DNA of 64,000 nt from Candidatus Peribacteria bacterium (lineage in GTDB: Bacteria; Patescibacteriota; Gracilibacteria; Peribacterales; Peribacteraceae): positions 23,664 through 87,663 of the forward strand of contig JAHFJP010000001.1 of assembly GCA_023245765.1 (NCBI GenBank), in the 5' to 3' direction. A program made the translations under genes and the position numbers. The stretch's first letter is position 1. Each line of letters opens with the position of its first letter. Below are positions 59,036 to 60,290 of the stretch, piece by piece. The notes under the pieces are model-generated. The model did no database searches. It was given only the letters and a program-made list of their open reading frames with translations, and was not told where the DNA came from.

Positions 59036-59059
59036 ATGTTCCACGGGGGCGTGGAACGT
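59036..59059. repeat. Palindromic element GTTCCAC-GGGGGC-GTGGAAC
   Basis: Between PBP stop and RAYT; related to 15489-15512. Confidence 0.75.
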
Positions 59060-59438
59060 CAAAGATGGCTTTCTGATAAGGAAAATTCATCATCGTTAAA
59101 AGAAAATGTTCTGAGAAGTCTCGACCTTCGATTATTCATGCATACGCTCACGGTATGCATCGCAATATTGAGAACATTCACCATCGGCGGTCGATTCGGT
59201 TGCGTGGGAGAGATTACGCGGAGCCTGGCATGTATTTTGTGACCATTTGCACGGCAAAAACGGGAGACGTGTTCGGCAATGTGCAACGAGGAGAAATGAT
59301 TCTCAACGCGTACGGCATCATTGCAGATGAATGTTGGCGGGTCATACCCGATCATTTTCCGTGGGTTGCCCTCGACGCGTTTGTCATTATGCCGGATCAC
59401 ATGCATGGGATTGTGGAAATCCTTCCGATGCGGGCATG

Positions 59439-59464
59439 TAGGGGCGTTGCATGCAACGCCCCTA
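59439..59464. repeat. Perfect 26-bp palindrome inside RAYT
   Basis: TAGGGGCGTTGCATGCAACGCCCCTA. Confidence 0.95.
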
Positions 59465-59485
59465 GCAAAAATGTCGGGTTCAACG

Positions 59486-59513
59486 GTAGGGGCCGAGCAT
59501 GCTCGGCCCCTAC
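59486..59513. repeat. Perfect 28-bp palindrome inside RAYT
   Basis: GTAGGGGCCGAGCATGCTCGGCCCCTAC. Confidence 0.95.
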
Positions 59514-59795
59514 ATTCCCGAATGGGAATGCAATGCCTCACGGACCAGAGCCACATTCGTTAGGTGCAATCATCCGGTCGTTTAAATCCGCCGTTACCCA
59601 TCGAGTGAATGATCTTCAGGGTGTTTCTGGTCAACAATTTTGGCAACGCAATTATTACGATCGCATTATCCGTTCTCACGATTTGGATGGTGTTCGGCGC
59701 TATATCATGGAAAATCCGAAACGTTGGACGCAAGCTTCAGGTGCTTCGAGCGTTCCAGTTTAAATACTATGGGATTTCGCCGGCATGACTTGGTT

Positions 59796-60290
59796 CTACT
59801 GAGGTTTTTCTTCCACGGCAGGCTCATTACTCACAACTCTCAACTGAAATCCATCATTGCGAACTGCATCGATGACGATGTAGGGCTCAACAACATTCCG
59901 AAGCTCTGTGATCCGAGCATTCAACGAATTTTTTGCATTTTCTTTGCCCCATCCTTCCATGGATAGTTCTTTTTGGGTCACTACTCTTTGTTGATTGTTG
60001 AACAACAGCATCAGGAGTTTGCCTTTTCTATTGCTCAAACGTCTCAGTGTTCCTTTTTGGAGGACTTTGAATATAGGTGCGTCATCAGCTAATGATTCTA
60101 AGAAAGGTTGCGGACCACGTCTTCTTCCCGCTGCTGCTAATGTTCTTTGAGACAGTTTTGCTATTTTTTTGCTTAGATCAGTTATGCGTTCCCGAGCCTT
60201 TTCGGCTTCTGAAGCTTCTAGAACTTTCGCCTGTTCAAGAAGAGATACAGCCACCAATAATTGACCAAGCTGAGCTTCCGATTTTACCAT
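59796..60290 (-). CDS. Winged-helix (OmpR C-terminal-like) DNA-binding protein with N-terminal coiled region
   Basis: RRLSNRKGKLLMLLFNNQQRVVTQKELSMEGWGKENAKNSLNARITELRNVVEPYIVIDAVRNDGFQLRV. Confidence 0.7.
   Translation of the reverse strand: MVKSEAQLGQLLVAVSLLEQAKVLEASEAEKARERITDLSKKIAKLSQRTLAAAGRRRGPQPFLESLADDAPIFKVLQKGTLRRLSNRKGKLLMLLFNNQQRVVTQKELSMEGWGKENAKNSLNARITELRNVVEPYIVIDAVRNDGFQLRVVSNEPAVEEKPQ

What the first reader, a model, noticed from the sequence alone, without database searches (positions are those of the whole stretch)
59439..59513. Two perfect palindromes with shared arms embedded in-frame inside the RAYT gene
TAGGGGC-GTTGCATGCAAC-GCCCCTA and GTAGGGGC-CGAGCATGCTCG-GCCCCTAC have the same outer arm and different inner stems, and sit in the loop between the HUH region and the SFKS helix of the transposase. 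The transposase gene apparently carries its own REP-type hairpins as coding sequence (peptide RACRGVACNAPSK...GRGRACSAPTF).
Basis: partly seen in the sequence, partly recalled or inferred. Interest (0 to 1): 0.72.

Follow-up and report, generated by a model that had tools for sequence, protein, structure and literature searches.

The report
Transposase gene carrying its own REPs
A REP-associated transposase gene carries, in frame in a floppy loop, a pair of the short palindromes it is thought to act on; this was already described for this transposase subclass, but comparison with about 150 relatives shows the palindrome is kept at the DNA level and follows the transposase lineage.

Summary
Two palindromes, GTAGGGGC-GTTGCATGCAAC-GCCCCTAG and GTAGGGGC-CGAGCATGCTCG-GCCCCTAC, lie in frame inside a RAYT gene (59155-59763), in the low-confidence loop between the HUH strand and the next helix. 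They are REPs: 17 perfect core copies exist in the genome, some in pairs, several in frame inside other genes (recG twice, murC). The genome's second RAYT carries a different palindrome in the same loop.

Among 149 homologues, 111 carry a strong palindrome in this loop (55/70 in the window's class, 56/79 in other phyla); 3 have one elsewhere in the core. Sequences differ but stay palindromic through two-sided changes, and synonymous shuffles rarely reproduce them. The palindrome matches copies flanking the same gene and follows the transposase lineage rather than the host phylum.

The phenomenon is published: Quentin et al. 2018 (PMC6006769) report predominant in-frame REP insertions between HuH and Y in TnpAREP subclass 2.4, with 'double foot' GTAG...CTAC REPs. 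So this is a new member of a known kind. Added here: the in-gene REP pair, the covariation, the lineage tracking, and an in-frame REP insertion in recG shown against relatives lacking it. Whether the in-gene copy has a function is untested.

The parts
59155..59763 (+). RAYT / TnpAREP gene (HUH Y1 transposase), 202 aa
   Evidence: Pfam Y1_Tnp 26.3 bits, above cut-off; NCBIfam REP_Tyr_transpos E 2e-16 but 60 bits, below its cut-off of 80; best fold match is PDB 4ER8
59389..59409 (+). HUH motif MPDHMHG (residues 79-85)
   Evidence: M, P, both H and G invariant in alignment A2
59438..59465 (+). In-gene REP 1: GTAGGGGC-GTTGCATGCAAC-GCCCCTAG, encodes about residues 95-104
59466..59485 (+). 20-nt spacer between the two REPs; the intergenic pairs on contigs C47, C52 and C40 have spacers of 16-18 nt
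59486..59513 (+). In-gene REP 2: GTAGGGGC-CGAGCATGCTCG-GCCCCTAC, encodes about residues 111-120
59701..59703 (+). Codon of the presumed catalytic tyrosine (Y183 in YIMENP)
   Evidence: invariant in A2
59039..59056 (.). Separate hairpin TTCCACG-GGGG-CGTGGAA upstream of the gene; 9 copies in the genome, also upstream of the second RAYT

Best explanation
The gene is a RAYT (TnpAREP) of the subclass 2.4 / group 4 type that carries a pair of its own cognate 'double foot' REPs in frame in the variable loop between strand beta3 and the next helix. The loop lies outside the folded core, so the peptide is tolerated as long as GTAG does not fall in the frame that reads TAG. Likely mechanism: the enzyme recognises a GTAG-footed hairpin in single-stranded DNA and cuts and rejoins next to it, as shown for other TnpAREPs in the literature (PMC8266576), and so spreads REPs; one REP unit sits in the gene itself and is inherited with it. 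Shown here: position, covariation, match to flanking and dispersed copies, tracking of the transposase lineage, and an in-frame REP insertion in recG. Inferred: enzyme activity, that this enzyme acts on this REP, and whether the in-gene copy is kept because it is useful or because it keeps being rewritten.
For: The same loop carries a palindrome scoring >= 10 in 55/70 class relatives and 56/79 genes of other phyla, versus 0 and 3 in about three times as much core DNA. Observed in 82/107 genes versus 42/2140 synonymous-codon shuffles. GTAGRG is found in the loops of 85/107 genes and 69 of these 85 continue as paired arms, chosen without requiring a palindrome; inner pairs use all four Watson-Crick types. 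Pairs of related genes show 796 two-sided compensated differences versus 212 one-sided. A cognate copy lies within 1.5 kb of its own gene in 36/81 versus 15/405 swapped. Inner-stem similarity is 0.61 for different-phylum pairs with close transposases and 0.37 for same-phylum pairs with distant ones. Own genome: 17 perfect cores. Known subclass feature: PMC6006769.
Against: No binding or cleavage data for this enzyme. NCBIfam score is below its cut-off. The exact-pattern searches show no REP copy right beside the window gene. About a quarter of homologues lack a strong loop palindrome, and a few (L058, L066) have a short loop with none, so the in-gene REP is not strictly required. Gene pairs counted are not independent events, and palindromes there were picked as palindromes.
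Confidence: 0.82

Rival explanations
1. Tolerated insertion only: REPs land all over the genome, and those in this disordered loop survive because they do no harm; the in-gene copy has no role of its own.
For: The same REP sits in frame in recG (two sites), murC and others. The loop is low-confidence in the model. Quentin et al. favour tolerance.
Against: High frequency across phyla, in-gene copies more common than close flanking ones (82/107 versus 36/81), frame conserved within clades more than by chance (14 changes versus at least 17 in 1000 shuffles), and two-sided compensation in loops of equal length.
Confidence: 0.45
2. The palindrome is conserved for the peptide it encodes, not for the DNA.
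For: The insert is always in frame, and some lineages share peptides such as VETxxxxVST.
Against: Peptides differ widely between lineages and frames (CRGxACxAPT, VETxxxxVST, VGAGLxPSPT) while palindromy is kept; synonymous shuffles do not reproduce it.
Confidence: 0.03
3. An mRNA hairpin that tunes expression of the transposase.
For: Very stable hairpins in the strand that matches the transcript (DNA parameters).
Against: Does not by itself explain the match to flanking and dispersed copies or the GTAG foot; it does not exclude the main reading.
Confidence: 0.15

Closest known systems
TnpAREP subclass 2.4 / RAYT group 4 with REPs inserted in the tnpAREP gene (Quentin et al. 2018, PMC6006769)
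   Same: REP in frame between HuH and Y, variable loop between beta3 and alphaC, double-foot GTAG...CTAC REPs, WQ motif
   Different: Our gene holds two REPs; HuH reads DHMH rather than NH[IFV]H and the Y motif YIMENP rather than YIxNNP; that paper treats the insertions as tolerated and, in the parts read, gives no covariation or lineage test
GTAG-tagged REPs and intragenic REPs (Di Nocera et al. 2013, PMC3733652)
   Same: GTAG foot, palindromic stem, dimers, REPs inside repair genes
   Different: The sections read (15, 16) do not mention REPs inside RAYT genes
E. coli RAYT (rayT b0228, PDB 4ER8)
   Same: HUH Y1 fold, best structural match
   Different: Lacks the loop insert and has no in-gene hairpin of score 7 or more
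Rickettsia palindromic elements (RPE)
   Same: Palindromic elements in frame in many proteins (as cited in PMC3733652)
   Different: Not compared by sequence here

Membership tests
RAYT / TnpAREP | HUH motif and catalytic Y of the Y1 transposase fold | tested here: met
RAYT / TnpAREP | Association with GTAG-footed REP hairpins dispersed in the same genome | tested here: met
RAYT / TnpAREP | Score above NCBIfam REP_Tyr_transpos curated cut-off (an annotation rule, not a biological definition) | tested here: not met
   60.1 bits against 80, E 2e-16, match in two stretches on either side of the loop; Pfam Y1_Tnp is above its cut-off
RAYT / TnpAREP | Binding and cleavage of cognate REP | not testable with these tools
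   needs purified protein
TnpAREP subclass 2.4 | Variable insert between beta3 and alphaC | tested here: met
TnpAREP subclass 2.4 | REP inserted in frame between HuH and Y | tested here: met
TnpAREP subclass 2.4 | Double-foot REP (GTAG...CTAC) | tested here: met
   second copy exact; first copy ends CTAG
TnpAREP subclass 2.4 | Motifs NH[IFV]H, WQ, YIxNNP | tested here: inconclusive
   DHMH, WQ, YIMENP: WQ fits, the other two differ by one or two residues (table; sequence)
TnpAREP subclass 2.4 | Placement in a tree with the published subclass 2.4 sequences | not tested
   those sequences were not at hand
REPIN | Two REPs in inverted orientation, mobile as a unit | tested here: inconclusive
   pairs with similar spacing recur, but each copy is a near-perfect palindrome, so orientation cannot be read

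The most novel reading that the evidence does not exclude
The in-gene REP is a selected cis element: the transposase gene carries its own recognition site, so that enzyme and site specificity travel and change together, and a new REP type can be founded wherever the gene arrives.
Probability: 0.3. Interest if true: 0.7.

Novelty: new member of a known kind. Interest (0 to 1): 0.42.

Why it matters
How REPs and RAYTs persist without transposing as a unit is an open question. A REP inside the coding sequence ties enzyme and site together, and makes the question testable by synonymous recoding. The covariation and lineage data argue that in-gene REPs are more than tolerated debris, but do not prove it.

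Tried and rejected
Sequence search of the window protein alone against the PDB gave nothing useful; the profile and the fold search gave 4ER8. A control set of other RAYT subclasses could not be centred on a genome outside the class; only E. coli rayT was used, so the claim that in-gene REPs are confined to this subclass rests on the literature. Protein-level conservation was rejected. A search for the second RAYT's palindrome type GAGACGCA-N-TGCGTCTC found only its in-gene copy, so dispersed cognate copies are not universal.

Full report
Observation. Shuffles never give the pattern. The first copy has the left GTAG foot but ends CTAG.

The protein. Pfam gives Y1_Tnp above its cut-off; NCBIfam REP_Tyr_transpos matches with E 2e-16 but below its cut-off. 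The AlphaFold2 model (mean pLDDT 77.8) has a confident core, and residues 106-121, within the palindrome-coded loop, fall below 50. The best fold match is the E. coli REP transposase 4ER8, which lacks the loop insert.

The REP family in this genome. Full-length copies with up to 3 mismatches number 14; perfect cores GGGCNNNGCATGCNNNGCCC number 17. Reversed control patterns gave zero. Pairs with similar spacing occur on C47, C52 and C40, so the gene carries what looks like a whole two-REP unit. The second RAYT (C54) carries another palindrome, GTAGAGACGCAAAATTTTGCGTCTCTAC, in the same loop.

Relatives. In 70 genes from the window's class and 79 from other phyla, 55 and 56 carry a loop palindrome of score 10 or more; outside the loop the counts are 0 and 3. 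An earlier set of 107 genes gave 82, against 42 of 2140 synonymous shuffles. Selecting loops by the GTAG foot alone, 69 of 85 continue as paired arms and the inner pairs vary through all Watson-Crick types. Near relatives differ mostly by two-sided compensated changes, for example L192/L169 (76% identical cores, equal loop length, three compensated pairs) and L056/L049; pair counts are not independent.

Cognacy and descent. The loop palindrome recurs within 1.5 kb of its own gene in 36 of 81 cases, against 15 of 405 swapped; in G049 and G058 the same palindromes are also dispersed in the genome. The inner stem follows transposase distance rather than host phylum, and the reading frame changes 14 times on the tree against a shuffled mean of 23 and minimum of 17. 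The tree is poorly resolved. This fits inheritance with the gene plus occasional renewal.

Mobility. recG of this genome carries two REPs in frame; at the second, 11 relatives, one of them 80% identical, lack 5-7 of the residues. murC and an N-terminal extension of ribosomal protein S10 carry others.

Prior art. Quentin et al. 2018 state that predominant in-frame REP insertions within tnpAREP genes, generally between HuH and Y, are a unique feature of subclass 2.4, with double-foot REPs. Di Nocera et al. 2013 describe GTAG REPs and intragenic REPs. Searches of the held library found no later treatment of in-gene REPs; subscription papers and Additional files were not read.

Verdict. Added here are the in-gene pair, the tests for DNA-level maintenance, and the recG comparison. 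Whether the in-gene copy has a function is open.

Noticed in passing
G000 contig C22 (L212, L220): recG: Two REPs in frame in recG; at the second, 11 relatives lack 5-7 of the residues.
   Followed up: yes
G000 contigs C54:55098, C54:29871, C67:24213, C69:9958, C68:40584: Same REP in frame in murC, a TPR membrane protein, a guanylate kinase-like protein, an N-terminal extension of ribosomal protein S10 and a protein without Pfam match.
   Followed up: partly
window 59039-59056 and 8 other sites in the genome: Hairpin GTTCCACG-GGGK-CGTGGAAC, upstream of both RAYTs and of a RAYT in genome G002; another dispersed repeat of unknown nature.
   Followed up: partly
window 59796-60290, minus strand: ORF with a Trans_reg_C winged-helix domain next to the RAYT.
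   Followed up: no
L012 (G002), near the N-terminus of its RAYT ORF: A second copy of the loop palindrome lies in or just before the start of the ORF.
   Followed up: no
L058, L066 (Pseudanabaena): RAYTs with a short loop and no palindrome: natural insert-free comparators.
   Followed up: partly
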